Shown here: positions 1 to 64,000 of the stretch, in pieces
Layout of the letters: every line of letters starts with the position of its first letter
Position numbering within the stretch: position 1 is the first letter of the stretch
Assembly (NCBI RefSeq): GCF_026278245.1
Contig: NZ_CP111079.1
Location: 4,354,501-4,418,500, forward strand
Reading direction: 5' to 3'
From: Pontibacter kalidii
GTDB lineage: Bacteria; Bacteroidota; Bacteroidia; Cytophagales; Hymenobacteraceae
Length of the DNA stretch: 64,000 nucleotides
The notes under the pieces: generated by a model
Database searches by the model: none
What the model saw: only the letters and a program-made list of their open reading frames with translations
What the model was told of the DNA's origin: nothing
Made by a program: the position numbers and the translations under genes

Positions 1-1138
1 TTTCTGCGGGCTGTTGCGGCGCGCCCTCAGGTGGTTGCTGCAGGTATAGCCTTTGCGTAGGCAGGGCGAACTCCGCCCCGTAGTTTTCCACAATTTCCAC
101 AATTCTGTAGTTGATTTCTTCTTTGATATCGATAAAGTCGAACCAATCCATGGTGTCCACAAAGTATAGCACCATCACATCCTTTGCGTCAGGGCTCAGC
201 CCCAGAAAGCGAACACGGCCATCGTCGTTCGTGCGCGGGTGCTGATCGATGTACGCCTGTATGTCGCGGGTAATGTCGCGGAGCTGCTGGGAGGTGGTCT
301 GGTAGGTCAGGCGAATATCGAACTTGGCTCGCCGGAAAGTACGCAGCGTCAGGTTATCGAGCGGCTTGTCGATCATCAGCTTATTGGGCACCGTCACGAA
401 GCTCTTCTCCAGGGTGCGGATGCGCGTGCTCCGGAAGCCCACTTTTTCCACGGTGCCGATCATCTCGCCCACCTGCACAAGGTCGCCGGCCATGAAGGGC
501 TTGTCGAGGAAGATGGTGAAGGAGGCCAGCAGATTCTCTATACTTTCCTTGGCGGCAAAGGCAACGGCCAAACCGCCCACACCCAAGCCAGCCACCAACC
601 CGGTTACGTTTACACCGAACACCGACCCCAGCATGGCCATAAAGGAGAAAACAACGATCAGCACCTTGGTGAAGTCCTTGAAGAAGGGCACCAGCTGCTC
701 GTTGAGCTTAGAAGCGGCCCGCTCGGTGCGGTGCTGAAACACAAGCCCCACAAAGTCGGCAAAGCGCAGCAGCACCCACGTAAGCGCCACGATCACGAAC
801 ACTTGGTATGTCCGGAGCAGGAAAGTCTTCAGGAACGGGTCACCGGCCTTCAGGTCTTGCGGCTGCACCGGGTAATCCAGCACCTGAAAAGCGAAGTATA
901 GAAATACCAGGAACAGCAGCACCTCCAGCGGCTGCACCAGCAGACGGCGGAACTCAGGCAGGTCGGCCTCAGGCCAGAACCGGCTTCCCAGCTTGTAGAC
1001 CAGGCCCGAAAGCATCCTGGACAGAAGCGTGTTGAAGAGAAGCCCGAATAAAAGTATGGCTGCGGAAGTAAGGTACTCCGCCACGGTATTCCCTAAGAAC
1101 TCCTGGCGGAGCCATTCGCTGTTAAGCAACTCTTGCAT
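1..1138 (-). CDS. MscS-family mechanosensitive channel (C-terminus cut by window edge)
   Basis: Small-conductance mechanosensitive channel that would open under hypo-osmotic membrane tension. About 379 residues are visible from the ATG at 1138. The N-terminus holds hydrophobic segments (AAILLFGLLFNTLL, LEVLLFLVFLYFAF, VFVIVALTWVLL). These are followed by the glycine/alanine-rich pore helix of the MscS family (VAGLGVGGLAVAFAAKESIEN) and the beta domain (PFMAGDLVQVGEMIGTVEKV, then FVTVPNK). The reading frame is still open at position 1, so the end is missing. The gene lies 16 bp downstream of the dehydrogenase at 1155-2387 on the same strand, so co-transcription is possible. A second, different MscS protein is at 56019-56966. 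Family assignment is firm; conductance and selectivity cannot be told. Confidence 0.9.
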   Translation of the reverse strand, partial: MQELLNSEWLRQEFLGNTVAEYLTSAAILLFGLLFNTLLSRMLSGLVYKLGSRFWPEADLPEFRRLLVQPLEVLLFLVFLYFAFQVLDYPVQPQDLKAGDPFLKTFLLRTYQVFVIVALTWVLLRFADFVGLVFQHRTERAASKLNEQLVPFFKDFTKVLIVVFSFMAMLGSVFGVNVTGLVAGLGVGGLAVAFAAKESIENLLASFTIFLDKPFMAGDLVQVGEMIGTVEKVGFRSTRIRTLEKSFVTVPNKLMIDKPLDNLTLRTFRRAKFDIRLTYQTTSQQLRDITRDIQAYIDQHPRTNDDGRVRFLGLSPDAKDVMVLYFVDTMDWFDFIDIKEEINYRIVEIVENYGAEFALPTQRLYLQQPPEGAPQQPAE

Positions 1139-1154
1139 AGGTAAGGGGGTTACT

Positions 1155-2387
1155 TTAGAGCAACTGGCTCAAGGCAATTTCAAAGCTTGTTTTGGCGATC
1201 TCGGTTTTCTGCATTTGCTTCCCATGCGATTTCTCCAGCGCCCTGCGGATGATGCTGGAGGTGTCGCTGAAGATAGCCTCGTCCGTGATTTCGACCTCGC
1301 TCTCCATCAGGTAGGCGAACACACGGGCCATGCCGCAGTTGGCGATAAAATCAGGGATAACAGAGAGGTTGCGGTCGGCATACTCGCCGGTAGGGCCGAA
1401 GAAGATCTCCGGGTCCTGGAAGGGCACGTTGGCGCCGCAGGAAATCACCTGCATGCCACTTTTAATCATCCGCTCCACCTGGTCGCGCGAAACGAGCCTG
1501 GAGGCAGCGGCAGGTATAAAGATCTCCGCCGGCAGGTCCCAGATACGACGGTTGGTATCTTCGAAAGTGAGTATACCCGGTGTGTCCGGGTTAAGTGTAT
1601 TGCCCTGTCGGTTCAGGAAAAGGTCCGTGATTTCCTCGAACGTATAGCCAGCCTCCTTTATCACGCCTCCGGCACGGTCTATAATGCCAACGATCTTCAC
1701 GCCTTTGGAGGCCAGGTAATAGCCTGCGGCTGCACCCACGTTGCCCCAGCCCTGTATAATGGCGCGCTTGCCTTCAAATTGTTCTCCCCAGATGTCGTAG
1801 TAGTGGCGCACGGCCTCCGCCACGCCATATCCCGTTATCATGTCGGCAACCGTGTACTTGCGGGCCGTGGAAGGGGAGAAGTGCGGATCCTCGATCACCT
1901 TGACCACGCCCTGACGAAGCTGGCCGATCTTGTTTATCTTTTGTGGCTCGGTGGCGTTAAAGTGACCGTTCACCACCCCCTCCTGCGGGTGCCATAAGCC
2001 ATAGTCTTCCGTAATCGGGATCACCTCGTGTATCTCATCCACGTTCAGGTCGCCGCCGGTGCCGTAGTAGCTCTTTAGCAGCGGGATAACGGCCTTGTAC
2101 CAACGCTCCAGCACGCCGCGCTTGCGTGGGTCAGCAGGGTCGAAGTTGATGCCGGACTTGGCGCCCCCAATGGCGGGGCCGGAGACCGTGAACTTCACCT
2201 CCATAGTCTTCGCCAGCGACTCCACCTCGTGCTTGTCCAGGCCCTTGCGCATGCGGGTGCCTCCACCTGCCGCGCCCCCGCGCAGCGAGTTGATCACTAC
2301 CCAGCCTTCGGCCTCTGTTTCAGGATCTTTCCACTCAAAAACTATCTCAGGTCTTTTGTTCTCAAACTTGGCAAGTAAGTCTTTCAT
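1155..2387 (-). CDS. Glu/Leu/Phe/Val dehydrogenase family amino-acid dehydrogenase
   Basis: NAD(P)-dependent oxidative deamination of an amino acid, 410 residues. The substrate-binding half has the glycine-rich GGAAGGGTRMR with Lys65 and Lys77 in GPAIGGAKSGI, the positions of the substrate-binding and catalytic lysines in this family. The Rossmann half has IIQGWGNVGAA. I chose the ATG at 2387. A TTG eleven codons upstream exists, but it overlaps a -7 promoter box (TACCTTTG, 2418-2425), so transcription should begin about where that TTG lies. The sequence differs clearly from the second family member at 14249-15529 and looks less like classical GluDH, so the substrate (Leu, Glu or other) is open. 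It is followed on the same strand by the MscS gene. Confidence 0.85.
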   Translation of the reverse strand: MKDLLAKFENKRPEIVFEWKDPETEAEGWVVINSLRGGAAGGGTRMRKGLDKHEVESLAKTMEVKFTVSGPAIGGAKSGINFDPADPRKRGVLERWYKAVIPLLKSYYGTGGDLNVDEIHEVIPITEDYGLWHPQEGVVNGHFNATEPQKINKIGQLRQGVVKVIEDPHFSPSTARKYTVADMITGYGVAEAVRHYYDIWGEQFEGKRAIIQGWGNVGAAAGYYLASKGVKIVGIIDRAGGVIKEAGYTFEEITDLFLNRQGNTLNPDTPGILTFEDTNRRIWDLPAEIFIPAAASRLVSRDQVERMIKSGMQVISCGANVPFQDPEIFFGPTGEYADRNLSVIPDFIANCGMARVFAYLMESEVEITDEAIFSDTSSIIRRALEKSHGKQMQKTEIAKTSFEIALSQLL

Positions 2388-2417
2388 TCGAGTTAAGGGT
2401 GTATCAAGTATATGGTG

Positions 2418-2425
2418 CAAAGGTA
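2418..2425 (-). promoter_or_regulatory. Bacteroidota -7 box for the dehydrogenase at 1155-2387
   Basis: On the minus strand the sequence reads TACCTTTG, matching the Bacteroidota -7 consensus TAnnTTTG, about 30 bases before the ATG at 2387. No good -33 TTG is seen at the usual distance. Confidence 0.5.
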
Positions 2426-2447
2426 CAAAATTTAAACCGGGCAGGGC

Positions 2448-3519
2448 TTAGCAGAGGTAAATGGCCCCGCCCACGTTGGTGCGGCTGGCGCCCGTTACGC
2501 TGCTGAGGCAGTTGGGCTCGCCGCGCCAGCGCAGCACGCCCAGGAAGGCGAATATCAGCGCCTCCTTGAACGAGACCACCTCCGGTGCCGGCACCTCCAC
2601 GTTGTACTTTGGGCCCAGGTGCTGCCGTATCTGCTCCACCAGGTAGCCGTTAAACGCTCCGCCACCTGTTAATAGTACACGGTGTTGCCCCTCATGCAGC
2701 GTCGGCAGTGCCAGCTGCAACTGCTGAGCAACGTGGTGGCAAACGGTGTGCAGTTTATCGGTAACGGAGGCATCGCTTGCTTCTATGCTTCTCAGGCTGT
2801 GCTCCATTACCCATTCCTTGCCCAGCGACTTGGGCGCCGGTGCCGAGAAGTACGCGGGGCGGTTAAGGGCCTCTAATAAATCCTGCTGCAACGTACCGGA
2901 GCGGGCCAGTGCGCCGTTATCATCGTAGGAAAGGCCTGCACGGTTGGCCAGTGTGTTCAGCAGCATGTTGCAGGCGCTCGTGTCAAAGGCCAGGCGGGTG
3001 CCGTTGCGGGTGTAAGAAACATTGGCGATGCCCCCAAGTTGACGCAGTAGTCGTACTGGCCGAACAGCAGTTCATCGCCGAGGGGCACCAGCGGGGCCCC
3101 TGCCCGCCCAGGGCAATGTCGAGGGTGCGGAAGTTGCAGACCACGGGTAGCTGCGCGCTTGCGGCCAGGTAAGCGCCATGGCCCAACTGCAGCGAGATGT
3201 GCTTTTCGGGCTGGTGGAAAATCGTATGTCCGTGAGAAGCAACAAAATCCGGCTGTATTGCGTGTTGTTGTACAAACTTGTGAACCTGCTGGCCCATAAA
3301 CCTGCCGAAGGCATGGTCCAGCTCCACCAGTTTCAGGCCGCTTGCGGTCTCGGCACCCCGTAGAGAGTCAATTAAAGTATCAGTATATGGTAATGTAGTA
3401 GTATTTAGTATCTCATATATCCAATTATGAGATTTGTACGTAAATCTACAATAAGCAATATCGAGGCCGTCGAGCGACGTCCCGGACATTAAGCCGATTA
3501 CATGATAAGAAGTATCCAT
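2448..3519 (-). pseudogene. anmK: Anhydro-N-acetylmuramic acid kinase with two single-base frameshifts
   Basis: AnmK phosphorylates 1,6-anhydro-MurNAc while opening the anhydro ring, a step of peptidoglycan recycling. The N-terminal part starts at the ATG at 3519 and has the family motif GLMSGTSLDGLDIA, then ASHGHTIFHQP and LDIALGGQG. Near 3093-3103 (a GGGG/CCCC run) one base is missing. Near 3031-3035 (a run of five C on the plus strand) a second base is missing, in what should read NLGGIANVSY. The C-terminal part resumes as DTSACNMLLNTLA and contains LLTGGGAFNGYLVEQ. Restoring both bases gives about 358 codons, the normal AnmK length. Both lesions lie in homopolymers within about 70 bp, so assembly error and true pseudogenisation are both possible. 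No other muropeptide-recycling gene is nearby. Confidence 0.85.
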
Positions 3520-3639
3520 TGGCCAAAAATAATAAAAGCACGCCAATGATTTTCAGCCAAATAGTGCAGGCTCCGTATATATCTTATTATGAATAAGAAT
3601 GAAAATTGATTTTAGAAACTGTTAGGTATAATTTTAATT

Positions 3640-3948
3640 ATGAAAAGTTTGTTGTCAAGAGTTGAATCGAAGAAGATAGATAAGGCGGCAGCCATGCTGA
3701 AGGTATTGGCACACCCCAAAAGACTGGCGATTGTGGATTTGCTCGGAAAAGAGGATAAAATGACTGTTACAGAGATATATAAGCAGTTAGACCTTCCCCA
3801 GGCCATCGCATCGCAGCACCTCATTACACTCAAAGACAAGGGCGTGCTCTCGTCCTTTAAAGTGGGAACCAAGATCTATTACTCCCTGGCTATCCCCAAA
3901 TTGATCGACGTGATCGATTGCCTGGAAGAATGCTGCATTGATATATAA
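3640..3948 (+). CDS. ArsR/SmtB-family winged-helix transcriptional regulator
   Basis: A 102-residue DNA-binding repressor-like protein. It shows the ArsR fold: the helix MLKVLAHPKRLAIVDLLG, then the recognition region TEIYKQLDLPQAIASQHLIT and the wing VLSSFKVGTKIYYSLA. The C-terminal helix ends with three cysteines (positions 94, 98 and 99), a plausible metal- or thiol-sensing cluster, but the match to a characterised site is only inference. It is a single gene, divergent from anmK and convergent with hemA, with two hairpins downstream (3955-3980 and 3998-4054). No metal-transport gene is adjacent, so its target cannot be guessed from context. Confidence 0.85.
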   Translation: MKSLLSRVESKKIDKAAAMLKVLAHPKRLAIVDLLGKEDKMTVTEIYKQLDLPQAIASQHLITLKDKGVLSSFKVGTKIYYSLAIPKLIDVIDCLEECCIDI

Positions 3949-3954
3949 GTATGA

Positions 3955-3980
3955 GCCTGCACCTCGGTGCGGCTTTCTTT
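3955..3980 (+). terminator. Intrinsic terminator after the ArsR gene
   Basis: A short GC-rich hairpin (GCACC-TC-GGTGC extended by GCC/GGC around a bulge) is followed by TTTCTTT, eight bases after the ArsR stop codon. Confidence 0.5.
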
Positions 3981-3997
3981 GCCAGTGGATGAAACGG

Positions 3998-4054
3998 CTA
4001 AGGCCCCCGTACATCTCAGGAATGGGAGATTTGCGGAGGCCTTAGTTGTTTTTT
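3998..4054 (+). terminator. Hairpin between convergent arsR and hemA
   Basis: Outer arms CTAAGGCC and GGCCTTAG and inner arms ATCTC/GAGAT, followed by TTGTTTTTTC on the plus strand. It ends about 20 bp from the hemA stop, so it may serve both converging transcripts. Confidence 0.6.
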
Positions 4055-4074
4055 CACTAAGAAAATTGCACTGT

Positions 4075-5358
4075 TTACTCAGTTTTTTGGTCCTCACTCA
4101 CCGGCTGATTCTCCAAATTAAAGAGGTCATTGAGCAGGTCGATGAGGGTTTCAGCCTCCCCGCGCTTGCAAGCGGCTTTCAGTTGCAGTACCGGCAGCTT
4201 TATAATTTTTTGCATCATCGACTTGGTGATGCTGTCTACTAACTTTGTCTCTTTCGGCCCCAGTTTCTTCACGTAGCGGGCTATTTCCTCCTGCCGTATC
4301 GTTTCCAGTGCGCTCTTTAGGCGGTGGATTGTCGGCGACACCATCATCTCCTTCGACCAGTCGTTGAACTGGTCAATCGACTCCGTCACAATCTCCTTTA
4401 CTTTCGGCACCGAGTTGATGCGGCGCTGCAGCGCCTCGGAAGCTTTGTTTTGAATGGTATCGATGTTATACACCAGCACGCCCGGTATACTTTCCAGGTC
4501 GGCTTCCACACTGCGCGGTACAGCCAGATCGATAAAGAACTTATAGGTAAGGATGTCCAAGCGCTTCACCATTTCCTTGGTAAAAAACGGCGTCTCGCGG
4601 GCTACGGAAGAGATGATCACATCGGCCTCCTTCATGCCCTGCACGATCTCCTCGAAAGGCAGGATCTCCATGTGGCACTCTTCGGCCAGGGCCTGCGCCT
4701 TTGCCTTGGTGCGGTTCGAGATCTTTACGTTCTTAAAGCCCAGGTCTTTCAGGTTGCGGCACACATCGGCGCCAATCTCGCCCAAACCTACCACCAGTAT
4801 ACTTGGGTCGGTGATGTCAGCGGTCAGCTCCTCGATCAGCTCGATCGCGGCGTAAGAGGTAGAGGCAGCACCGTCCCGGAAAGAGGTCTCCTGCACCACG
4901 CGCTTGTTGGTGAAGAAGATCGTGTGCATCAGGCGGTGGAGGAACGGGCCGGCGGTTTCGTTGTCGGCGCTCCACTGGTAGGCCATCTTCACCTGGTTCG
5001 AGATCTGCATATCGCCCACCACCTGCGACTCCAGCCCCATCGACACGTCGAAAAGGTGCTGCACGGCATCGTCGTGCTCGCTCAGGATGGTGAAATAGTC
5101 GAAGTACTGGGAGATGTTCTCGATGCCCTTGGTGATGCCCAAAAGCTTGACGATCTCCTTGCTGTAGTCGATATCGGCGTTGTAGTATACTTCGGTGCGG
5201 TTGCAGGTGGACAGGACCAGGATGTCAGAAGCCTGTATAAAGCCCTTGAGCGTCTGTAGGAAAAGCCTGCAGGAGGATTCATCTAAGGCAATCAGCTCCC
5301 TGATATCCAGCGGCGCTTTCTTATACGACAGGCTGATTGCTTTAAAGTTCTGAAGCAT
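4075..5358 (-). CDS. hemA: Glutamyl-tRNA reductase
   Basis: Reduces glutamyl-tRNA(Glu) to glutamate-1-semialdehyde with NADPH, the first committed step of C5-route tetrapyrrole synthesis. It has 427 residues. The N-terminal catalytic domain has the active-site cysteine Cys52 in LSTCNRTEVYY and the conserved stretch GLESQVVGDMQI. The NADPH-binding domain has LVVGLGEIGADVCRNL and ISNRTKAKA. The C-terminal helical dimerisation domain is complete. The ATG at 5358 is preferred over an upstream in-frame TTG because a -7 box (TAACTTTG, 5383-5390) overlaps the upstream codons. It is transcribed divergently from the histidine kinase at 5472. No other hem gene is in the window. Confidence 0.95.
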   Translation of the reverse strand: MLQNFKAISLSYKKAPLDIRELIALDESSCRLFLQTLKGFIQASDILVLSTCNRTEVYYNADIDYSKEIVKLLGITKGIENISQYFDYFTILSEHDDAVQHLFDVSMGLESQVVGDMQISNQVKMAYQWSADNETAGPFLHRLMHTIFFTNKRVVQETSFRDGAASTSYAAIELIEELTADITDPSILVVGLGEIGADVCRNLKDLGFKNVKISNRTKAKAQALAEECHMEILPFEEIVQGMKEADVIISSVARETPFFTKEMVKRLDILTYKFFIDLAVPRSVEADLESIPGVLVYNIDTIQNKASEALQRRINSVPKVKEIVTESIDQFNDWSKEMMVSPTIHRLKSALETIRQEEIARYVKKLGPKETKLVDSITKSMMQKIIKLPVLQLKAACKRGEAETLIDLLNDLFNLENQPVSEDQKTE

Positions 5359-5382
5359 AATAACGTGGGTTCTACTAAAGTG

Positions 5383-5390
5383 CAAAGTTA
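5383..5390 (-). promoter_or_regulatory. -7 box of hemA
   Basis: Minus-strand TAACTTTG fits TAnnTTTG about 25 bases before the hemA ATG. Confidence 0.5.
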
Positions 5391-5471
5391 AGGCTCTAAT
5401 TTTTAAAATGAAACTTACTTGCCCTCTATGTTCAATTTATACTAATTTCAAATAAATTACGTGATTACTGC

Positions 5472-6653
5472 ATGATTCCCATCTACTCCCAGAAGAACAG
5501 GATAAAGCTTGTTGTTGTTATCATCGCCCTTATCATCGGTGCCGCCACCATTACCTACACCAATATACTTGTCAGCAAGTTGTCGGAGCGGGAGCAGGAA
5601 CTGGTGCAGCTCTACGCTAAGGGCCTGCGCTACATGATCAACGCCCCCAGCGACGACAACATCGTGTTCATTGAGGAGGAAATCCTGTCGTCCAACACCA
5701 CGGTGCCCGTTATACTAACAGATGAAAACGAAAATATTCTCGATTCTAAGAACATCAACATCCCAGAAAACATTTCGGATAAACCGGATAAAATAAACCA
5801 GTACCTGCAGGGCGAGATTGAGAAGATGAAGGAGCAGCATGCGCCGATCGTGGTGCCGTGGGCCGAGGGGTCGGTCAACTACGTTTTCTATAAGGATTCT
5901 GAACTGCTCTCGCAGCTGCGCTTTTACCCTTACGTGCAGCTGATCGTGATCTCGTGCTTTGCGCTGGTGGCTTACTTTGCCTTCAGCTACTCGCGCCGCG
6001 CCGAGCAGAACAGGGTATGGGTAGGCCTGGCCAAGGAAACGGCACACCAGCTGGGCACGCCGCTGTCGTCGCTGATGGCGTGGTACGAGTACATCAAGGG
6101 TAACCCGAAGTTTGAGAACGAGCCGATCCTGGAGGAATTGGGTAAGGATGTGCGGCGGCTGGAGATCATCACGGAGCGCTTCTCCAACATTGGCTCGGTG
6201 CCTACGCTACGCGACGAGAACATCCTGCAGGTAACGCAAAACGCCATCAACTACCTGCAGAACCGCATTTCGCGCAAAGTGGCCTTTACGGTGGAGTCTA
6301 CCTTCTCGCCCGATATTACGGCCAAGGTAAACGTGTCGCTGTATGACTGGGTGATCGAGAACATCTGCAAGAACGCGGTGGATGCCATGGAGGGCCGCGG
6401 CAGTATTAACATACAGATGGTGCTCCTGGGCAAAAGCAGCATTGCCGTAGATATCACCGACACCGGGAAGGGCATCCCCAAAAGTAAGATCGACTCCGTA
6501 TTCCTGCCCGGCTTCACGACCAAGAAGCGTGGCTGGGGTCTGGGCCTTGCCCTGGCCAAGCGCATCATCGACAACTACCACGACGGCAGGCTCTACGTGA
6601 AGTGGTCGGAGGTAGGAAAGGGAACGACCTTCCGGATCGTGCTGAACAGGTGA
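5472..6653 (+). CDS. Orphan membrane sensor histidine kinase
   Basis: A 393-residue sensor kinase with two membrane helices (about residues 12-33 and 155-172) around an extracytoplasmic sensor region of about 120 residues that I do not recognise. The H-box is ETAHQLGTPLSSL, with the phospho-acceptor His at residue 192. The ATP-binding part has the N-box NICKNAVDAM, the G1 box DTGKGIPKSKID, and FLPGFTTKKRGWGLGLALAK. No receiver or response-regulator gene lies next to it, so the partner is unknown. It shares a 113-bp divergent promoter region with hemA. That arrangement could mean nothing more than proximity. Confidence 0.92.
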   Translation: MIPIYSQKNRIKLVVVIIALIIGAATITYTNILVSKLSEREQELVQLYAKGLRYMINAPSDDNIVFIEEEILSSNTTVPVILTDENENILDSKNINIPENISDKPDKINQYLQGEIEKMKEQHAPIVVPWAEGSVNYVFYKDSELLSQLRFYPYVQLIVISCFALVAYFAFSYSRRAEQNRVWVGLAKETAHQLGTPLSSLMAWYEYIKGNPKFENEPILEELGKDVRRLEIITERFSNIGSVPTLRDENILQVTQNAINYLQNRISRKVAFTVESTFSPDITAKVNVSLYDWVIENICKNAVDAMEGRGSINIQMVLLGKSSIAVDITDTGKGIPKSKIDSVFLPGFTTKKRGWGLGLALAKRIIDNYHDGRLYVKWSEVGKGTTFRIVLNR

Positions 6654-6710
6654 TGGGAGTTAGAGCGTTTGGGAGTTAGAAAGGTAGAGAGTTAAAGAGG
6701 TGGAGATGGG
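6653..6710. repeat. GTTAGA-type minisatellite
   Basis: Degenerate repeats of the form GGAGTTAGAG / GGAGTTAGAAAG / AGAGTTAAAGAG lie immediately after the histidine-kinase stop codon. Similar tracts occur at 10866-10900, 11213-11262, 18308-18353, 18449-18466 and briefly near 55710. Confidence 0.7.
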
Positions 6711-6759
6711 CGGAAGGTATGGTCTGTTGTCCTTTGTCTCGCAGTCTTTTGTCAAGAGA

Positions 6760-7701
6760 ATGGTGGAAGTAGTAAAGTATAGCGCAAAGTATAAACCGGC
6801 TTGGGATGCGTTTGTGGCAGGCTCTAAAAACGGCACCTTTCTGCTGCTGCGCGATTATATGGAGTACCACGCCGATAGGTTTGCGGACCACTCGCTGCTG
6901 TTTTACCACAAGGGCAAGTTGGTGGCGCTGCTGCCGGCCAATGTGGCGGGGCGGCAGGTGCAGAGCCACGGCGGCCTGAGCTACGGCGGGCTTATAACAG
7001 ACAAGCGCATGAAGGCCACGCTGATGCTGGAGGTGGTGCAGGTCCTGAAGTCATACTTCCAGGAACTGGGTTTCAGAAGTGTCCTCTACAAGGTTATTCC
7101 GCACATCTACCACCAACTACCCGCCGAGGAAGACCTGTACGCCCTGTTTAGACACGAAGCTATACTTTACCGCCGCGATTTGAACTCTGCAATAGCCATT
7201 GGGGGCGCTGCAGGGTATAGCAAAGACAGACGGTGGCGCTTATCGCAGGGGAAAAGAGCTCGCTTAAAGATAGGCCAGTCGGAAAAGTATGCAGCGTTTT
7301 TTGAGCTGGAGCGAAAGCTGTTGCAAGAGAAGTATAACACCGTGCCCGCCCACACCGCGGATGAGATGGAACTGCTTGCCTCCCGCTTCCCGAAGAACAT
7401 CAGGCTTTACACTGCCACTGATAGGGGTGAGTTGCTGGCCGGCGTGCTGGTGTATGAAACGCCCACGGTAGTGCACTCACAGTATATTGCCACCTCAGAG
7501 CGGGGCCGTGACCTGCACGCGCTGGATGTGCTGCTGGATTGGCTGCTAACGGAAGTATACCCGCACAAGTCCTACTTCAGCTTCGGGATTTCCACCGAGC
7601 AGCAGGGGCAGTTCCTGAACGAGGGGCTGGTCCGCAACAAGGAAAGTTACGGCGCCCGCACCATCGTGCACGACTTTTATGAGCTGAGGCTGGGGGAGTA
7701 A
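6760..7701 (+). CDS. FemAB/GNAT-like acyltransferase
   Basis: A 313-residue protein resembling the FemAB-like branch of the GNAT superfamily, with two half-domains. Visible landmarks are the start region AWDAFVAGSKNGTFLLLRDYMEYH, FADHSLLFYHKGKLVALLPA, and the C-terminal half with LLAGVLVYETPTVVHSQYIA and HALDVLLDWLL. Such proteins transfer acyl or aminoacyl groups to cell-surface or small-molecule acceptors; the acceptor here is unknown. I start it at the ATG at 6760. A GTG at 6700 in frame lies inside the repetitive GTTAGA tract and is less likely. It ends 20 bp before a very strong bidirectional terminator. Confidence 0.75.
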   Translation: MVEVVKYSAKYKPAWDAFVAGSKNGTFLLLRDYMEYHADRFADHSLLFYHKGKLVALLPANVAGRQVQSHGGLSYGGLITDKRMKATLMLEVVQVLKSYFQELGFRSVLYKVIPHIYHQLPAEEDLYALFRHEAILYRRDLNSAIAIGGAAGYSKDRRWRLSQGKRARLKIGQSEKYAAFFELERKLLQEKYNTVPAHTADEMELLASRFPKNIRLYTATDRGELLAGVLVYETPTVVHSQYIATSERGRDLHALDVLLDWLLTEVYPHKSYFSFGISTEQQGQFLNEGLVRNKESYGARTIVHDFYELRLGE

Positions 7702-7720
7702 AATAAGCTGCGCGGCAAGT

Positions 7721-7768
7721 ATAAAACAGCAGCGGCTGCCTTTGGTGGGGCAGCCGCTGCTGTTTTAT
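7721..7768. terminator. Perfect 20-bp inverted repeat, bidirectional terminator
   Basis: Two perfect 20-base arms (ATAAAACAGC... and its complement) surround the 8-base loop TTTGGTGG. A-tract and T-tract ends suit both strands. It separates the convergent acyltransferase and NhaC-like genes. Confidence 0.85.
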
Positions 7769-7783
7769 AGGTATAACTATATG

Positions 7784-9772: not shown

Positions 9773-9958
9773 TCAGATTGTTCGCGGGTTTGTAAACTCC
9801 CTAATATAGAAAAGAATCAGGAAACGCAGAAATGTTTGTACTACGCTGCCCCAGCCGTACGCTAAAAAGAGCCCGTAGCGGCACCCTTGTACGGCGTAAA
9901 GCTTAAAGTACAGGTGTTATACTTTTAGATAGACGCTATTCCGGTGCGAGGGAATTTC

Positions 9959-10807
9959 CTACCTGGCCCGGTTCACGATAAAGACGCCCAGCAGAATCAC
10001 CACCATGCCTGCGTAATGCCACAGGTGAATGGCTTCGCCATCGAGCACGCCCCACATCAGGGCCACGACAGGTATAAGGTAGGTAGTGGAACTGGCGAAG
10101 AGGGTGGTGGAGATGTGGATGAGTTTGTTGAAAAGTATAAGCGCGATGGCAGTGCTGAACACAGCCAGTAGGGCGATGTACAGCAGCGCCTCCCAGGCTC
10201 CCGGCACATGCTGCAGCTTATATACAAAATCAGTGGTGAGCAGGTATACCAGCGCCACCGGTCCCACCGTAAGCAAGGCCAGGCTGGAAATGGCGATGGC
10301 TTTCATGCCGTGTAGGCGGTGCTTGATGATATTGGCGCTGATGCCGTAGAAGATGGTGGCCAGCACGATGTACAGACCATAGTACATGTTGTCGAGTTCG
10401 GCGTTGCCGTTGCCGGTGAAGATAAGGATAGCCGTGCCCGCAATACCGATGATGATGCCGAGCATGCGCAGCCAAGTGATGGACTGGCCGAAAAGGATGG
10501 CTCCTGCCAGTAGCGTGAAGAGGGCCGTAAGCGAGTTCAGCACGCCTGCCAGTCCGCTGGCCAGGCGCGTTTCGGCGATGGCAAACAGGAAAGCCGGAAA
10601 GAAGTTGCCCAGCAAACCGGTACCCAGCAGGAATTTCCAGCGGCTGGGCTCCACTTTGCGCAGGTTCCTGATAGCGAACGGCAGCAGCACGGCGCAGGCG
10701 ATCACCATCCGCAGGGCACCCACCTCATCAGAGGAGAAAACTACCAGCCCTTTTTTGATCAGTATAAACGAGGTGCCCCAGATAAGGGCAAGTATGGTCA
10801 CCAGCAC
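9959..10807 (-). CDS. EamA/DMT-superfamily transporter
   Basis: A ten-helix drug/metabolite transporter. Motifs: ALIWGTSFILIKKGL at the start, GLAGVLNSLTALFTLLAGAILFG, and in the second EamA half STAIALILFNKLIH and TYLIPVVALMWGVLDGE. Substrate not predictable. The start is uncertain. The GTG at 10807 is the first standard initiation codon in frame. About 20 more codons upstream (from ATT AAA TCC...) remain open until a stop and look like the usual EamA N-terminus, so an original ATG may have become ATT. The gene is preceded by a GTTAGA repeat tract and a 449-bp non-coding gap. Confidence 0.8.
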   Translation of the reverse strand: MLVTILALIWGTSFILIKKGLVVFSSDEVGALRMVIACAVLLPFAIRNLRKVEPSRWKFLLGTGLLGNFFPAFLFAIAETRLASGLAGVLNSLTALFTLLAGAILFGQSITWLRMLGIIIGIAGTAILIFTGNGNAELDNMYYGLYIVLATIFYGISANIIKHRLHGMKAIAISSLALLTVGPVALVYLLTTDFVYKLQHVPGAWEALLYIALLAVFSTAIALILFNKLIHISTTLFASSTTYLIPVVALMWGVLDGEAIHLWHYAGMVVILLGVFIVNRAR

Positions 10808-16407: not shown

Positions 16408-16690
16408 TTTGTCAGAATCAGGATTTTCAGGATCTATGCGTTGCCCCATAAATACCATATGTTTAGCAATAGCGTGACTTGTGGCTATAACTGCTGCAGT
16501 TTGCAACTGCTTTGCTTTAAAAAAGCAAAGGGCCAAGGTCTTAGCTATACGTTATACTTTAGCTAAGGCCCGTAGAGTATGAATCTGCGGAAGTATACTT
16601 TTCTGCCCGCTCAGCAAGCGAGTCGCAAACTTGGAGCATACAACGCCATGATTTCAAAAGTCGTGACACTTGATACGTGCTACGCAAAAA
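16408..16690. repeat. Non-coding gap with three consecutive palindromes
   Basis: No gene. From 16496 to 16571 three stems follow each other: GCAGTT-TGC-AACTGC, CTTTGCTTT-AAA-AAAGCAAAG, and GGGCC...GGCCC with inner TAGCTA/AGCTA arms. The first belongs to a GTTGCAAAC family also seen at 37244, 37270 and 42086. The region separates convergent psd and msrC. Confidence 0.6.
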
Positions 16691-17279: not shown

Positions 17280-18308
17280 CTAACGCCGGTAGTGCAACAA
17301 CTGGTCAGGGCCTAAAGTTTGTATACTTTGCAGCTGGCCAAAGGCCATGCCGGGCGCTTTTATACCTTCTCCAAGCGTTTTGTGCAGGCTCTTGAACACC
17401 AGCGCCTCGTCCCAAAGGTTAGCCTGCAGCAGGCTCTCCAGCAAAAAGGTGCCCCCTTCCACCATCACCGACAGCACGTTGCGCCGGTGCAGGTCCTGCA
17501 TGATCTGCGGAAGTATAAGCTCGTCCTCCTGCAGCTGCACAAAGTATAAATGCTCCCGATCCTCCTGATGCCTGTAAGTATAAACCACCGTCGGTTGGCT
17601 GCCATCGAAGAGGTGCAGGTGCGGCGGCAGCAGCAGGTTTTTGTCTATCACCAGCCGCAGTGGACTTGGCCCGTGCCATAAGCGTGTGTTCAGGCGCGGA
17701 TTATCGTAGAGGGCGGTGCGGCTGCCTACCAGAATGGCCTGCTCTTCGGAGCGCCACTTGTGCACCAGCCGCTGCGCCAGCTTCCCGCTGATCTGCTGTT
17801 GCCGGTAGTTAGCTCCTGCAATGAAACCGTCTGCCGTCTCAGCCCACTTCAAAAGTATAAACGGCCGCTGATGAGTATGAAACGTGAAGAAACGCTTATT
17901 CAGCTCCAACCCTTCCTCCTCCAGTACGCCCACCTTTACCTGGGCGCCGGTATCGAGGAGCTTCCTGATGCCGCGCCCGGCCACCAGCGGGTTGGGGTCC
18001 GTGTTGCAGATCACCACGTCCTTCACGCCATGGCTGATGAGCAGGTCGGCGCAGGGAGGTGTTTTGCCGTAGTGCGAGCAGGGCTCCAGCGTTACGTATA
18101 CCTTGCTCTCCGGAAGTAGGCTTTTGTCCTCCACGGCCGCAATGGCATTTACCTCGGCATGCGGGCCTCCATACTGCTTATGCCAGCCCTCGCCGATGAT
18201 CTGCCCTTTGTGCACCACCACGCAACCTACCATCGGGTTAGGGCTGGTGTAGCCGCTGCCCAATCGGGCCAGCTCCAGGGCGCGTCGCATGTATCGTTCG
18301 TCAGACAT
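17280..18308 (-). CDS. ribD: Bifunctional riboflavin deaminase/reductase
   Basis: Catalyses the second and third steps of riboflavin synthesis: deamination of the pyrimidine and NADPH reduction of the ribosyl side chain. It has 342 residues. The N-terminal deaminase has the zinc site GGPHAEVNAI and PCSHYGKTPPCADLL. The C-terminal reductase begins at RPFILLKWAETADGFIA, with the later LSVMVEGGTFLLESLL. This reductase is on the short side but has its key glycine and substrate segments. It is divergent from prmC, with GTTAGA repeats filling the gap. No FMN riboswitch is seen upstream. The gene is notably rich in the AAGTATA word (at least five in 17,320-17,860). Confidence 0.95.
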   Translation of the reverse strand: MSDERYMRRALELARLGSGYTSPNPMVGCVVVHKGQIIGEGWHKQYGGPHAEVNAIAAVEDKSLLPESKVYVTLEPCSHYGKTPPCADLLISHGVKDVVICNTDPNPLVAGRGIRKLLDTGAQVKVGVLEEEGLELNKRFFTFHTHQRPFILLKWAETADGFIAGANYRQQQISGKLAQRLVHKWRSEEQAILVGSRTALYDNPRLNTRLWHGPSPLRLVIDKNLLLPPHLHLFDGSQPTVVYTYRHQEDREHLYFVQLQEDELILPQIMQDLHRRNVLSVMVEGGTFLLESLLQANLWDEALVFKSLHKTLGEGIKAPGMAFGQLQSIQTLGPDQLLHYRR

Positions 18309-29806: not shown

Positions 29807-29832
29807 CCTGCAAGTAAAGTATAAAGTATAAG

Positions 29833-32154: not shown

Positions 32155-33633
32155 TTAGTAGGCCTTGGCAAAGTATACGCGGCGCTTGCTCGGCTTGCCG
32201 GTTACCAGATCCACGCCGTCTTCCTCGGGCGTGTTCAGGCCGATGCAGCGGATGGTAGCCTTCGTCTCCTCCTTGATGCGCTCCTCGGTCTCAGGGGTGC
32301 CATCCCAGTGGGCAAGCACAAAGCCGCCCTTATTTTCCAGCACCTGCTTGAACTCCTCGTAAGAATCTACCTTGGTGGTGTGCTCCTCACGGTAATTCAG
32401 CGCTTTGTTGTAGATGTTCTCCTGGATCTCGTCGAGGAGGGCCGGGATGTAATCCGCCAGCGTGGCGAATTGCTGCGTGCTTTTTTCCTTGGTGTCGCGG
32501 CGGGCCACTTCGGCGGTGCCGTTCTCCAGGTCGCGGGCCCCGATGGCAATGCGCACCGGCACGCCTTTCAGCTCCCACTCGGCAAACTTAAAGCCCGGGC
32601 GCTCGGTGTCGCGGTCGTCGAACTTCACGCTGATGCCTTTGGCCAACAGCTCGCGCTTCAGCTGGTTTACCTTCTCCGTGATCTGCGCCAGCTGCTCCTC
32701 ACCTTTGTAGATCGGCACGATCACCACCTGGATAGGGGCCAGCTTTGGAGGCAGCACCAGGCCCTCATCGTCGGAGTGGGCCATCACCAGCGCGCCCATC
32801 AGGCGCGTGCTCACGCCCCACGAGGTGCCCCACACGTGCTCCAGGCCGCCGTCTTTCGTGGCGAACTTCACGTCGAACGCCTTAGCAAAGTTCTGGCCCA
32901 GGAAGTGCGAGGTGCCCGCCTGCAGCGCCTTGCCATCCTGCATCATCCCTTCGATGCAATAGGTCTCCAAAGCACCGGCAAAGCGCTCGCTCGGGGTTTT
33001 GATGCCGCGAATCACCGGTAGTGCCAAGTATTGCTCGGCAAAGGTAGCGTATACTTCCAGCATCTGCTCTGTTTCGGCAATAGCCTCCTCGGCGGTGGCG
33101 TGGGCCGTGTGGCCTTCCTGCCACAGGAACTCCGCCGTGCGCAGGAACAGACGCGTGCGCATTTCCCAGCGCACCACGTTGGCCCACTGGTTTATCAGCA
33201 GGGGCAGGTCGCGGTAGCTTTGTATCCAGTTTTTGTACGTATTCCAGATCACGGCCTCCGAGGTAGGGCGCACGATCAGTTCTTCCTCGAGTTTGGCGTT
33301 CGGGTCCACGCGCAGTTTGCCTGGCTTGTCCGGGTCGTTTTGCAGACGGTAGTGCGTTACCACGGCGCATTCCTTTGCGAAGCCTTCGGCGTTCTGCTCC
33401 TCGGCTTCAAACAAGCTCTTGGGCACGAACAGCGGGAAATAGGCGTTCTCGTGGCCGGTGGCCTTAAACATGTCGTCCAGCTGGCGTTGCATCTTCTCCC
33501 AGATGGCGTAACCATATGGCTTGATCACCATGCATCCGCGCACGGCCGAGTTCTCCGCCAGACCTGCCTTTTTCACCAGCTCGTTATACCACAGCGAGTA
33601 ATCGTCGCTTCTTTTAGGTAACCCTTTGCTCAT
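32155..33633 (-). CDS. proS: Prolyl-tRNA synthetase, short (type 3)
   Basis: Charges tRNA(Pro) with proline. It has 492 residues. The class II core has [14 protein letters not shown] (motif 1 region), [13 protein letters not shown] and [20 protein letters not shown] (motif 2), and [20 protein letters not shown] (motif 3). The anticodon-binding domain ([18 protein letters not shown]) and the zinc-like C-terminal domain ([13 protein letters not shown], ending VYFAKAY) make it the archaeal/eukaryal-like form without an editing insertion. Monocistronic, with a 196-bp AT-rich divergent region to the lipoprotein at 33830. Confidence 0.96.
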
Positions 33634-39682: not shown

Positions 39683-39702
39683 GCAAGTATAAAACCAAGT
39701 AT

Positions 39703-39733
39703 AAAGGCCTGCCGGAAACGGTGGGCCTTTTTT
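39703..39733 (+). terminator. Terminator after the DPP IV gene
   Basis: AAAGGCC/GGCCTTT arms with inner CC/GG pairing, then TTTT; lies next to the convergent alarmone-synthetase stop. Confidence 0.75.
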
Positions 39734-40601: not shown

Positions 40602-40682
40602 GGCGTTAGGGCATTTACACACTCCCCCTCACAGAGTATAGCCGGTTTTCTGCGAAATGTTGCGGCCAGGCTAAAGTATACT

Positions 40683-41954
40683 TTATTCCTTCAGGCCCAG
40701 CTGCGCGTTTATCAGCGGTGTTTTGGGTGCCAGGAAAAAGCCTGTGAGGCTGGCAAACATAATGGGTATAAAGTGGTGAAAGCCCGTGAGTGTGGCCAAG
40801 AGCACAATGGTGCTGATAGGTGTGCGCGTAACACAGGCGTTAATGGCGGCCATGCAGCTGACAAGTATAAGCGGCAGGTTCTGACCCGGAAACAGGTTGT
40901 TGATGATCAGGCCCACGGTAGCGCCCACAAAAAACAACGGAATGATGAAGCCGCCGCGCCAGCCGGAGGTAACGGTAAAGGCAATCGCCAGGATTTTGGC
41001 CACCAGAAGTATGAGCAGGAACTCCAGTGTAAACGGCTCCTCCAGCAGTAGGTTCAGTTCGTCGTGACTGAAGTAGCGGGAGAGGGGCACGTAGTAAGCG
41101 ATGGTGCCAATCAAAATTCCGCCCACCATCATCTTGATGTAAATCGGGACATTAAACTTTTTAAACATGCTTCTGCTCCAGCGCACCGTGAAGATAAACA
41201 GCCAGCCCGCCGCCGTACCCGCCAGGGCGTAGAGCATGGCGTAGAAGAAGTCGGTGAGCTCGGGGGTGGCGTATACCGGGAAATTCCAGGTGGGACCGAT
41301 GCCGATGTGCGTGATCAGGATAAAGATAACGTAGCTGGAGCAACTGGCCACAAAGGCCGGGATCAGGGCCTGGTAATACTCTACCACGTGCTTGTGATGC
41401 AGGATTTCAAGGGCGAACAGTGTGCCGCCCAGCGGGGCACCGAACAGGGCCGTAAAGGCAGCGGCCATACCGGCAATGGTTAAAGAGCGCAGGTCCTCGC
41501 CGCGTATCTTCAGCTTTTTGGCTATCCAGGTGCCCGTGGAGCCTACTACCTGCACCAGCGGCGCTTCCGGTCCGGCACTGCCGCCACTGGCAATGCACAG
41601 CCACGACGACAGGATCATGGACGGGTTGTTCTTCGGCTCCAGATGCCCGCCTTTAAAGCGGATGTTGTTCACGATGAGGTCCATCTCGCCCGGGTCTCCT
41701 AGCCTGTGGATGATGATCCCCGCCAGCAAGCCGGCCGCCGCCATCAGTGGGATAACCCACAGCCCCTGAATCGGAGCCAGGAGATGAAGAAAGCTTTCCA
41801 GCACGGTCCAGTATAGGCCGGCAATTACGCCGCCCACGATGCCAATGGCCACCCACAGCAAAAAGATCTTGCTGAACACAAATGGGTTGAACTGCAAAGG
41901 ATAGTTTATCTGGTTACGTAGCGTAACGGCCAGTCGTCTTCTCTTAAAGTCCAT
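40683..41954 (-). CDS. CLC-family chloride channel/antiporter
   Basis: A 423-residue CLC protein with about ten to twelve hydrophobic helices. The selectivity and gating signatures are SGGSAGPEAPLVQVVGS (Gly-X-X-Gly-Pro-Glu with the gating Glu), GMAAAFTALFGAPLGGTLFA, and SGWRGGFIIPLFFVGATVG near the C-terminus. No CBS domains. It could be an H+/Cl- exchanger or fluoride/nitrate-type variant; the residues needed to decide cannot be placed with certainty by eye. 82 bp upstream of the alarmone synthetase gene. Confidence 0.92.
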   Translation of the reverse strand: MDFKRRRLAVTLRNQINYPLQFNPFVFSKIFLLWVAIGIVGGVIAGLYWTVLESFLHLLAPIQGLWVIPLMAAAGLLAGIIIHRLGDPGEMDLIVNNIRFKGGHLEPKNNPSMILSSWLCIASGGSAGPEAPLVQVVGSTGTWIAKKLKIRGEDLRSLTIAGMAAAFTALFGAPLGGTLFALEILHHKHVVEYYQALIPAFVASCSSYVIFILITHIGIGPTWNFPVYATPELTDFFYAMLYALAGTAAGWLFIFTVRWSRSMFKKFNVPIYIKMMVGGILIGTIAYYVPLSRYFSHDELNLLLEEPFTLEFLLILLVAKILAIAFTVTSGWRGGFIIPLFFVGATVGLIINNLFPGQNLPLILVSCMAAINACVTRTPISTIVLLATLTGFHHFIPIMFASLTGFFLAPKTPLINAQLGLKE

Positions 41955-42330
41955 GGGGCAAAAGTACGGATAAATGTAGGAGGGGGTAAAGGGGAAAGTA
42001 TAAAGTGCCGTTTCTTTGGCGAGGAAATGAGGGATTTAGTTTGACAACCGGTTTGTAACCAGCGAAAGTATACTTCTGGAATTTGCCAGTTGCAAACTGG
42101 CCTTATGCAAGCCACAAGTTGCGCTGGCGCTAAACTTGCGGCATGGAGCGGGGGGGGGGGTAGAAGGGAAGACTAGCCTCTGCTGGCGGCGCGGCAGTTA
42201 GCAGTTGGGGCGCGGCTATGGAGAGGTATTTATACTTTTGATCATTCTGAAAGAACTCTGATGGAAGGGAGGGGAGCATTACAACTTGCAAACAGAATCC
42301 TTACAGGATGACATAGAAAGGCGTTGGTTG
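41955..42330. other. Non-coding gap with repeat copy and poly-G tract
   Basis: No gene. It contains the palindrome CCAGTTGCAAACTGG (42087-42101), a third copy of the 45-bp repeat (42099-42145), and an 11-G run (42150-42160). It separates the minus-strand YcxB-like gene from the CLC gene. Confidence 0.7.
42099..42145. repeat. Third copy of the 45-bp dispersed repeat
   Basis: CCTTATGCAAGCCACAAGTT, GCGCTGGCGCTAAACTTGCG and GCATGG match 11154-11198 (CCTTATGCTGCCACAAGTT, GCGCTCCCGCTACACC, TGCGGCAG) with few differences. Confidence 0.65.
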
Positions 42331-52261: not shown

Positions 52262-52903
52262 CTAGCCTTTCACGCAGCGGAACGTGAGGTTGATGCGAGG
52301 TTGTACGGCTTTGGCCGTTTTAGGGACGTGGTGGAGCCAACGGTGCTGCGTAGGCCCCTGCATAAGCAGCAAACTGCCGTGAGAAAGTATAAGCGGAACG
52401 GGCTTTAGGTCTTTGCGGGTGCGGTGCCTGAAGGCGAAGCGGCGCTCGCCGCCAAAACTCAGACTGGCGATACTTGGTTGCTGCCCTAACTCCGGCTCGT
52501 TGTCTGCGTGCCAGCCCATACTATCCTGGCCGGTGCGGTAGAGGTTGAGCAACACACTATTATACTTCTGGCCACAGGCCTGCTCCACCTTTCCGCGTAG
52601 TTCCTGCAGCACCGGCAGCCACGGCTGCGGCTTGTTTTGCAGCCCCGAGTAAGTGTAAGCCTTATCGCCATACCAGGCCGTGAGGCGGGGCATGGGCAGC
52701 TGGCGGCCGAACATTTTTATACTTTCCTGCTGCCAGTTTACTTCCTGCAGCAGGCGCTCAAAGTATACATCGTTTTCCGGGGCAGGTATAAAAGCCGCGG
52801 TAAAGTATACTTCGGCATCGGGAAGGGGCAGCTGTTGCCATTGCTCGTTGCTATAGTTCATACATACAGTATAAAGTTCGGTGCTTGCTTTAAAAGATTT
52901 CAT
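52262..52903 (-). CDS. AlkB-like 2-oxoglutarate/Fe(II) dioxygenase
   Basis: An oxidative demethylase of alkylated nucleobases by family, 213 residues. The iron ligands His-X-Asp are in SMGWHADNEPELG, the distal His is in QHRWLHHVPKT, and the Arg pair for 2-oxoglutarate is in PRINLTFRCVKG. FGRQLPMPRLTAWYGD and NSVLLNLYRTGQDSMGW are typical of the AlkB/ALKBH2-like branch. The ATG at 52903 overlaps the last 14 bases of the upstream antiporter, which would couple translation. An internal ATG at 52861 is an alternative. Confidence 0.9.
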   Translation of the reverse strand: MKSFKASTELYTVCMNYSNEQWQQLPLPDAEVYFTAAFIPAPENDVYFERLLQEVNWQQESIKMFGRQLPMPRLTAWYGDKAYTYSGLQNKPQPWLPVLQELRGKVEQACGQKYNSVLLNLYRTGQDSMGWHADNEPELGQQPSIASLSFGGERRFAFRHRTRKDLKPVPLILSHGSLLLMQGPTQHRWLHHVPKTAKAVQPRINLTFRCVKG

Positions 52904-63296: not shown

Positions 63297-63485
63297 GGTG
63301 TGCGGTTTATACTGGAGGCTAACGGAGCAGCCTGGTTTATACTTTGTTTTCAGCGTAAGTTACGCATTTGGGGAGGAAAATGCGCAGGGTATAAAGTGAG
63401 AGAGAGCTTTGGTGCACCGGCTTTAGCAAATGTACAGCCGGCCTCTTTTTAAATGTTTGCCGCTGCTAAGGGTTGAACCGAAAAG

Positions 63486-64000
63486 CTATTTTTTACTCAC
63501 ACAGTATCCTACAGACAGCTGAAACACCTGATTCTTGGCCCCAATGATATCCACCAGCCCTATATGGTGGCGCAGGCTGAAAGTGGCTTTGCTTTCATTG
63601 CCAAATGAGAGCCCATAGACCAGGCAGTAATCTTTGCCTTCCATTTGTGGGCGGGAATCAATGGCTTCGTACTCGTAACGCTGGTCCAGCAGCAAACCAG
63701 CGTAGGCGCCCCCTTGCAGGCTTACATTCGGTGCAACAAAAACTTTTGCCGTAACAGGCACATTAAGGTAATGCAGCAGCAGGTGTCCACGCTCCAGCTC
63801 CGCGCCTTGGAACGAATACTGCGCTTCTACCTGGACTCCCACCTTGTCGCTCTGCATGGTCAGATAGTAGATGCCGGCATGGCCGCCTAACTGTGCACCC
63901 TGCCAAGGACCATCTTTCAAGGCGATGGTAGTAAGGCTAGGGCCAATTTTAACGCTGGTAAAGCTCTGGTTGGGAGATGGTGCCTGAGGCGCATTCTCCT
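63486..64000 (-). CDS. PorT-like outer-membrane beta-barrel (N-terminus beyond window)
   Basis: About 170 C-terminal residues of an outer-membrane barrel of the Bacteroidota porin-family/OMP_b-brl_2 type. The visible frame runs in from the window edge with VKIGPSLTTIALKDGPWQ. Alternating strands follow: VGVQVEAQYSFQGAEL, HLLLHYLNVPVTAKVF (the LNVP turn is characteristic of this group), SLQGGAYAGLLLDQRYE and FSLRHHIGLVDI. The end is VFQLSVGYCVSKK. The start lies past 64000. Its cargo or function is unknown. The next gene on this strand is kynU, 190 bp downstream. Confidence 0.75.
   Translation of the reverse strand, partial: ENAPQAPSPNQSFTSVKIGPSLTTIALKDGPWQGAQLGGHAGIYYLTMQSDKVGVQVEAQYSFQGAELERGHLLLHYLNVPVTAKVFVAPNVSLQGGAYAGLLLDQRYEYEAIDSRPQMEGKDYCLVYGLSFGNESKATFSLRHHIGLVDIIGAKNQVFQLSVGYCVSKK

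What the first reader, a model, noticed from the sequence alone, without database searches (positions are those of the whole stretch)
1..64000. Heptamer AAGTATA/TATACTT is strongly over-represented across the whole window
Seen directly: the word occurs in nearly every gene and gap, in several reading frames (AGT ATA, AAG TAT, GTA TAC), on both strands. Examples are 162, 894, 6777, 21893, 24001, 29817, 29824, 30403, 36633, 39685, 39697, 46433, 47623 and five in ribD (17320-17860). By base composition I would expect roughly six copies in both strands of the window; I see many dozens. It uses the rare ATA codon in a genome that otherwise avoids it. It recalls words selected genome-wide, such as HIP1, Chi, KOPS or DNA-uptake sequences, but no such word is known to me for this group.
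Basis: partly seen in the sequence, partly recalled or inferred. Interest (0 to 1): 0.72.

Follow-up and report, generated by a model that had tools for sequence, protein, structure and literature searches.

The report
Genome-wide DNA word with dialects
Bacteria of the genus Pontibacter carry thousands of copies of one short DNA word, different related species use different versions of it, and it behaves like the self-recognition tags some other bacteria use when taking up DNA, although no usual DNA-uptake pilus motor was found in them.

Summary
AAGTATA occurs 113 times in the window against 4.3 expected and 8,861 times in the genome against 356 for the reversed word. Codon usage does not explain it: 1,204 copies in ORFs against 177 after synonymous shuffling. 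It lies in all six frames, is three times denser between ORFs, and is strand-neutral (52:48).

It is confined to one genus (Pontibacter) of six in the family. Of 50 genomes, 19 use AAGTATA, 12 AGGTATA, 5 AACTATA, 3 a mixture, 1 TATATA, and 10 show no clear word. Words are conserved between same-dialect species (69% against 38% for control words) but not across dialects (9% against 10%).

Best reading: an uptake-sequence-like word kept by biased natural transformation. ComEC, DprA and a helix-hairpin-helix protein are in 50 of 50 genomes, with ComEC or DprA broken in two. No type IV pilus ATPase was recognised, so the receptor would be new. Uptake is untested, wordless genomes keep these genes, and word erosion in competence-broken G166 was not word-specific.

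The parts
1..64000 (.). 113 copies of AAGTATA spread over the whole window on both strands; core AAGTATA, with A favoured at -1, +1 and +2
   Evidence: one search lists all 113 positions; one search gives the logo
16591..16600 (.). AAGTATACTT: two words overlapping on opposite strands
   Evidence: 16591 +, 16594 -; 164 such sites in the genome against 1 of the reversed control
40674..40683 (.). AAGTATACTT overlapping pair
42066..42075 (.). AAGTATACTT overlapping pair
52803..52812 (.). AAGTATACTT overlapping pair
17280..18308 (-). ribD-like gene holding five words (17322, 17511, 17542, 17576, 17853)
   Evidence: RibD_C and deaminase domains
29817..29830 (+). two words directly abutting
   Evidence: 29817 and 29824
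39685..39703 (+). two words 12 bases apart
32155..33633 (-). prolyl-tRNA synthetase gene, the anchor used to fetch the homologous region of 49 genus-mates for dialects, tree and conservation tests

Best explanation
AAGTATA is the local dialect of an uptake-sequence-like DNA word of Pontibacter. Shown: a sharp 7-9 base word (AAGTATA, or AACTATAG, AGGTATAG, TATATA in sister clades, all sharing a TATA core) is hugely over-represented, is conserved between species that use the same version and not otherwise, and, for the AAG to AGG change, is replaced partly in place. Inferred: cells take up environmental DNA by natural transformation through ComEC, the helix-hairpin-helix protein and DprA, and a DNA receptor that is not a type IV pilus prefers fragments that hold the word. 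Repeated replacement of chromosomal alleles by word-bearing fragments then spreads and keeps the word (biased uptake as molecular drive). A change in the receptor's specificity starts a new dialect, and loss of specificity lets the word decay.
For: Over-representation beyond composition and codon usage. Sharp specificity: exact word 13.4 times expectation, 20 of 21 single-base variants 0.8-2.8 times, only AAGTATG higher at 5.1. Strand-neutral, 1120 leading against 1030 lagging. Denser between ORFs, 3.8/kb against 1.24/kb. Poorer in the five chromosome samples under 49% GC (1.06 against 1.85/kb in the other 53; one of the five holds masked bases) and in 40 kb of the 74-kb second contig (0.55 and 0.30/kb). 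Dialects with a shared TATA core that follow the tree, borne out by whole-genome counts. Conservation in disjoint same-dialect pairs: AAG 106/153 against control 432/1139, p 2e-13; deeper AAG pairs 25/70 against 109/709, p 8e-5; AGG 101/149 against 587/1440, p 3e-10; AAC 43/70 against 195/415, p 0.03. Across dialects or to wordless genomes: 16/179 against 159/1522, p 0.6. In-place dialect change AAG to AGG: 8 of 32 sites against 8 of 113 (p 0.009, from G178) and 13 of 45 against 21 of 216 (p 0.002, from G152); within AAG genomes the same change is not raised (2 of 28 against 3 of 99, p 0.30). Competence genes ComEC, HHH and DprA present in 50 of 50; where broken, more than one is broken (G166 all three, G186 ComEC and DprA). 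The traits that Bakkali 2007 (PMC1939737, passages) lists for known uptake words match: not palindromic, more in non-coding DNA than expected, no orientation bias; dialects with a common core match Frye 2013 (PMC3630211, passages).
Against: No uptake or competence experiment for this genus turned up in my searches. No sequence-specific receptor was identified. T4P ATPases, used by the known systems, were not recognised. Ten of 50 genomes show no clear word yet have ComEC, HHH and DprA without stops in the matched stretch, so these genes do not predict the word. In G166, with all three genes broken, words were lost more than in G170 (25 against 10) but control words were too (104 against 65; Fisher p 0.34); G147, with open ComEC and DprA, has even fewer words per kb (0.82 against 1.00); G186, with two broken genes, shows no thinning in the region sampled. 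One same-dialect pair taken alone (G000 to G178) fell short of significance (16/56 against 64/370, p 0.06). Spacing is slightly clustered, not even. The excess at gene ends disappears against synonymous shuffles. In-place AAG to AAC change was too rare to judge (2 of 33 against 0 of 36, p 0.23).
Confidence: 0.6

Rival explanations
1. A HIP1-like process: an orphan adenine methyltransferase marks the word and a methylation-guided mismatch repair creates and keeps it; dialects reflect different enzymes.
For: Elhai 2015 (PMC4390886, abstract and passages) reports alternate HIP words paired with matching methyltransferases in cyanobacteria, so dialect-like replacement is known there. Methyltransferases are present in many of these genomes.
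Against: HIPs are palindromes; AAGTATA and AGGTATA are not. N6_N4_Mtase is absent from 19 of 50 genomes, including word-rich G150, G157, G162 and G155; word-rich G156 also has only weak partial PF02384 matches. Other methyltransferase families were not searched. A dialect shared by 12 genomes of one clade is unlike exchangeable modification systems (inference).
Confidence: 0.15
2. A Chi-like recombination signal read by the AddAB-type nuclease, with dialects following changes in the enzyme.
For: An AddB-type PDDEXK_1 protein is in 50 of 50 genomes (the AddB label is mine). Chi words are short and over-represented (recalled).
Against: Only 52% of copies are on the leading strand; classic Chi words are clearly skewed (recalled). 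The words are denser between ORFs. The enzyme is equally present in wordless genomes.
Confidence: 0.08
3. Binding sites of a chromosome-organising or silencing protein that recognises TATA-containing words and whose specificity drifted between clades.
For: TATA core shared by all dialects; wide, strand-neutral spread.
Against: Sites are fewer, not more, in the five AT-rich samples. Selection on each of 9,000-20,000 single sites would have to be very weak and yet maintain them (inference).
Confidence: 0.1
4. An artefact of composition, codon usage or repeats.
For: The raw fifth-order Markov expectation approaches the observed count.
Against: The masked Markov model gives 223 against 2150, synonymous shuffles 177 against 1204, and the word is conserved only within a dialect.
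Confidence: 0.01

Closest known systems
DNA uptake sequences (DUS) of Neisseriaceae and their dialects (Frye 2013, PMC3630211)
   Same: Short non-palindromic word, thousands of copies, clade-specific dialects with an invariant core (CTG there, TATA here), some relatives without it
   Different: No type IV pilus ATPase recognised in the genus, so no ComP-type receptor is expected; the word is shorter (7-9 bases against the 10-mers of the passages read) and there is one per 570 bases here; uptake preference not shown
Uptake signal sequence of Pasteurellaceae (Bakkali 2007, PMC1939737)
   Same: Over-represented, strand-neutral, favours non-coding DNA, clear core
   Different: No conserved flank beyond about 2 bases; most single-base variants barely enriched; spacing slightly clustered; different phylum
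HIP1 and alternate HIPs of cyanobacteria (Elhai 2015, PMC4390886)
   Same: Extreme genome-wide density; replaced by other words in some lineages
   Different: Not a palindrome, not GC-rich, no matching methyltransferase found in the two families searched
Natural transformation of Riemerella anatipestifer (PMC8459023)
   Same: Same phylum; ComEC, DprA and a helix-hairpin-helix protein are needed there, and proteins of these three kinds are in all 50 Pontibacter genomes (one-to-one homology of the HHH proteins not tested)
   Different: No uptake word was mentioned in the parts I read; the DUF5689 domain of its surface protein has no match in the window's genome

Membership tests
DNA uptake sequences (general kind) | Preferential uptake or transformation of DNA that holds the word | not testable with these tools
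   Needs an experiment
DNA uptake sequences (general kind) | Very strong over-representation of a short non-palindromic word | tested here: met
   8861 against 356; synonymous and masked Markov nulls
[quoted passage not shown] more in non-coding DNA | tested here: met
   52:48 leading:lagging; 3.8/kb against 1.24/kb (1.2 Mb of 5.05 Mb sampled)
DNA uptake sequences (general kind) | Competence genes present | tested here: met
   ComEC, HHH_3 and DprA 50 of 50; ComEC and DprA without stops in the matched stretch in 48 (G184's ComEC frame is short, 561 aa), the HHH protein in 49
DNA uptake sequences (general kind) | Loss of competence is followed by erosion of the word | tested here: inconclusive
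   G166: word loss not separable from general divergence, p 0.34; wordless genomes keep the genes
Neisserial DUS / ComP system | Type IV pilus machinery with a DNA-binding pilin | tested here: not met
   T2SSE: at most 25.9 bits over about 60 of 370 positions, 3 of 50 genomes just over the cut-off of 24.9, read as unrelated P-loop proteins; pilins not searched
HIP words | Palindromic word | tested here: not met
   AAGTATA and AGGTATA are not palindromes; the palindromic form AAGTATACTT is 164 sites, far fewer than the 8861 copies of the word. TATATA of G181 is one
HIP words | Matching orphan methyltransferase follows the word | tested here: inconclusive
   PF01555 and PF02384 patchy, and missing or partial in word-rich G156; other families not searched
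Chi | Leading-strand orientation bias | tested here: not met
   1120:1030
KOPS | Strong skew towards the terminus | tested here: not met
   1120:1030

The most novel reading that the evidence does not exclude
A whole genus of Bacteroidota discriminates its own DNA with species-group dialects of one short word during natural transformation, through a sequence-specific DNA receptor that is not a type IV pilin and is not yet known; the clade-wise switch of dialect would be a barrier to gene exchange between sister lineages.
Probability: 0.5. Interest if true: 0.9.

Novelty: new variant of a known kind. Interest (0 to 1): 0.82.

Why it matters
Uptake words are, as far as I recall, established only in Pasteurellaceae and Neisseriaceae. 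A word system with dialects, transitional genomes and several apparent losses among 50 species of one genus, in a phylum whose DNA uptake apparatus is poorly known, would make two questions testable: how such words start, switch and vanish, and what takes up DNA in Bacteroidota. If the mechanism is not uptake, the maintenance of 9,000-20,000 copies of a 7-base word still needs an explanation.

Tried and rejected
Chi and KOPS: rejected as first choice on strand balance. HIP-like methylation: kept as a rival. DUF5689 surface protein of Riemerella as receptor: 22 of 50 genomes, not in the window's genome, no fit to dialects; in the two loci read (L210, L211) it sits next to a SusD-like gene (name from recall). 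ComEC, HHH, DprA and AddB as presence/absence correlates: all 50 of 50, so uninformative. Word erosion in competence-broken G166: seen as a lower count but not word-specific. Even spacing of words: not found. Bias to gene ends: not beyond codon composition. Comparable words in other Bacteroidota: of 78 loci (L007-L084), the 70 of at least 12 kb were examined (one is P. silvestris); only L055 and L040 had an 8-mer at z 10 or more, and L040's lies mainly in a tandem array. Genes next to comEC and the HHH gene: compared in 10 genomes by presence and identity, no dialect-linked candidate seen. Structure prediction and fold searches were not used.
Full report
OBSERVATION. AAGTATA occurs 113 times in the window; dinucleotide shuffles average 4.3. 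The window is bases 4,354,501-4,418,500 of the main contig (4.98 Mb) of a 5.05 Mb genome that also has a 74-kb contig. The genome holds 4451 + 4410 copies; the reversed word 170 + 186. That is one copy per about 570 bases.

NULL MODELS. In 58 pieces of this genome (1.204 Mb, 57 samples of 20 kb plus the window) there are 2150 copies. Raw Markov expectations rise with order to 1868 at order five because the word makes its own hexamers; with the word masked the fifth-order expectation is 223. In 923 predicted ORFs (a crude set) 1204 copies are seen against 177 after synonymous shuffling, in all six frames at 3.6 to 26 times expectation. Density is 3.8/kb between ORFs and 1.24/kb inside. The same tests hold for the other dialect words in their own genomes: AACTATA 187 against 23.7, AGGTATA 368 against 38.4.

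SHAPE OF THE WORD. The exact word is at 13.4 times the second-order expectation. Of 21 single-base variants only AAGTATG is strongly raised (5.1); the others lie at 0.8-2.8. In this genome A is favoured at -1, +1 and +2, T is depleted there, and nothing passes the reporting threshold further out. The palindromic overlap AAGTATACTT has 164 sites.

PLACE ON THE CHROMOSOME. GC skew puts the origin near 4.2 Mb and the terminus near 1.6 Mb. By that map, 1120 copies lie on the leading and 1030 on the lagging strand. Five samples under 49% GC average 1.06/kb (one holds masked bases), the other 53 average 1.85/kb; the two sampled 20-kb pieces of the 74-kb contig have 0.55 and 0.30/kb, although chance alone would favour the word in AT-rich DNA. 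Gaps between words are slightly clustered (CV 1.33 against 1.12 simulated).

WHO HAS IT. Of 204 genomes of the family in six genera, strong enrichment is confined to the window's genus. One other genus (g2, 8 genomes) has forward-strand ratios to the control of about 1.3-2.6; the remaining four lie at about 0.7-1.8. Contig lengths tie G155 to Pontibacter burrus, G182 to P. silvestris and G189 to an uncultured Pontibacter. Within the genus the AAGTATA-to-control ratio runs from 0.8 (G181) to 38.5 (G162).

DIALECTS. Homologous regions of 49 genus-mates (12.7-40 kb each) show why. Some low-AAGTATA genomes have another word: AACTATA(G) in 5 genomes (one, G161, is still rich in AAGTATA), AGGTATA(G) in 12, TATATA(A/G) in one (G181), both AAG and AAC words in 3 (G159, G191, G195); 19 use AAGTATA and 10 show no clear word (weak traces in G163, G183 and G187). 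Whole-genome counts of ARSTATA (AAC, AAG, AGC and AGG together) agree: for example G155 17,543 of which 1,983 are AAGTATA, G149 11,001 of which 1,060, and mixed G159 19,754 of which 9,116, with reversed controls of 1,550-2,160. On a seven-protein tree of 50 genomes plus three outgroups, the AGG group is one clade with an AAG sister (G178), the AAC and mixed genomes form one clade, and the wordless genomes fall in several places (G193 basal, weakly supported; G182; G163/G183/G179/G175/G154; G187/G160/G173). AAG as the ancestral dialect is my inference from this tree.

EVOLUTION OF SITES. I aligned homologous DNA and asked how often a word in one genome is the same in another, against permutations of the same letters. 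Disjoint AAG-AAG pairs: 106/153 against 432/1139. Deeper AAG pairs: 25/70 against 109/709. AGG-AGG: 101/149 against 587/1440. AAC-AAC: 43/70 against 195/415 (p 0.03). From AAG genomes to other-dialect or wordless genomes: 16/179 against 159/1522. So the word is maintained only where it is the local dialect. Single pairs vary: G000 to G178, both AAG, gave 16/56 against 64/370, p 0.06. AAG sites of G178 are AGG in at least one AGG-clade genome at 8 of 32 sites (control 8 of 113); from G152, 13 of 45 (21 of 216); within AAG genomes the change is not raised (2 of 28 against 3 of 99). AAG to AAC was too rare to judge (2 of 33 against 0 of 36).

MACHINERY. ComEC, a helix-hairpin-helix protein of about 315 aa and DprA are found in 50 of 50 genomes. 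Proteins of these three kinds are needed for transformation in Riemerella anatipestifer, where four other needed genes, the HHH gene among the unfamiliar ones, resemble no known machinery (PMC8459023, abstract and sections on sequence analysis, distribution and discussion). ComEC and DprA carry stops in exactly two genomes, G166 and G186, and the HHH gene in G166 too; G184's ComEC frame is short (561 aa) without a stop in the matched stretch. At the comEC and HHH loci of G166 the other matched genes are open, apart from two ORFs that I take as spurious antisense frames; at its dprA locus two flanking ORFs had no match and two short ones carried stops, so there is no neighbour control there. 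No type IV pilus ATPase was recognised: PF00437 matches are fragments of about 60 of 370 positions at up to 25.9 bits, 3 of 50 genomes just over the cut-off of 24.9. TonB mutants transform less in Riemerella (PMC8383284, passages), one hint of a different outer-membrane route.

WHAT DOES NOT FIT. The ten genomes without a clear word keep all three genes without stops, so the word does not follow these genes. In G166 words were lost more often than in G170 (25 against 10) but so were control words (104 against 65), p 0.34. G147 has open genes and fewer words per kb than G166 (0.82 against 1.00). G186, with two broken genes, is not thinned in the region sampled. The receptor is unknown: DUF5689 proteins occur in 22 of 50 genomes and not in this one. 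Uptake has not been measured.

RIVALS. HIP-like methylation: the main words are not palindromes, N6_N4_Mtase is missing from 19 of 50 genomes including word-rich ones, and G156 has only weak partial N6_Mtase matches; other methyltransferase families were not searched. Chi or KOPS: strand balance speaks against. A nucleoid protein: sites are rarer in AT-rich samples.

VERDICT. Biased DNA uptake is the most likely cause (0.6). It works like an uptake sequence; membership in the Neisserial pilus-dependent system is not claimed, since that machinery was not recognised. In the paper searches made I found no earlier report among the listed titles and abstracts; the library lacks most subscription journals and all bioRxiv preprints.

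Noticed in passing
L055 (Ulvibacter antarcticus DSM 23424), 319-12912: TTCCGAAG occurs 16 times, dispersed on both strands in 14.3 kb, against 0.49 expected from shuffles: possibly a second, unrelated genome-wide word in Bacteroidota.
   Followed up: partly
window 10865-10899, 11208-11260, 18310-18352: Short arrays of an AGTTAGA-type octamer, also single copies elsewhere (20 copies of AGTTAGA against 5.2 expected).
   Followed up: no
G166 (L246, L256, L260) and G186 (L258, L259): More than one competence gene is broken in each: comEC, dprA and the HHH gene in G166, comEC and dprA in G186.
   Followed up: yes
several genus-mates (one search sets): CAGGTCG/CGACCTG is about five-fold over-represented in some genomes (55 against 9.5 in 120 kb of AAC genomes); may be a codon-pair effect.
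   Followed up: no
L248 (G000:C1:4812400-4832399): The region of the competence HHH gene holds 65 words in 20 kb, nearly twice the genome mean.
   Followed up: no
L040 (Olleya) 1932-2131: GACCTAGA repeats mostly at 24-base spacing, a tandem array.
   Followed up: no
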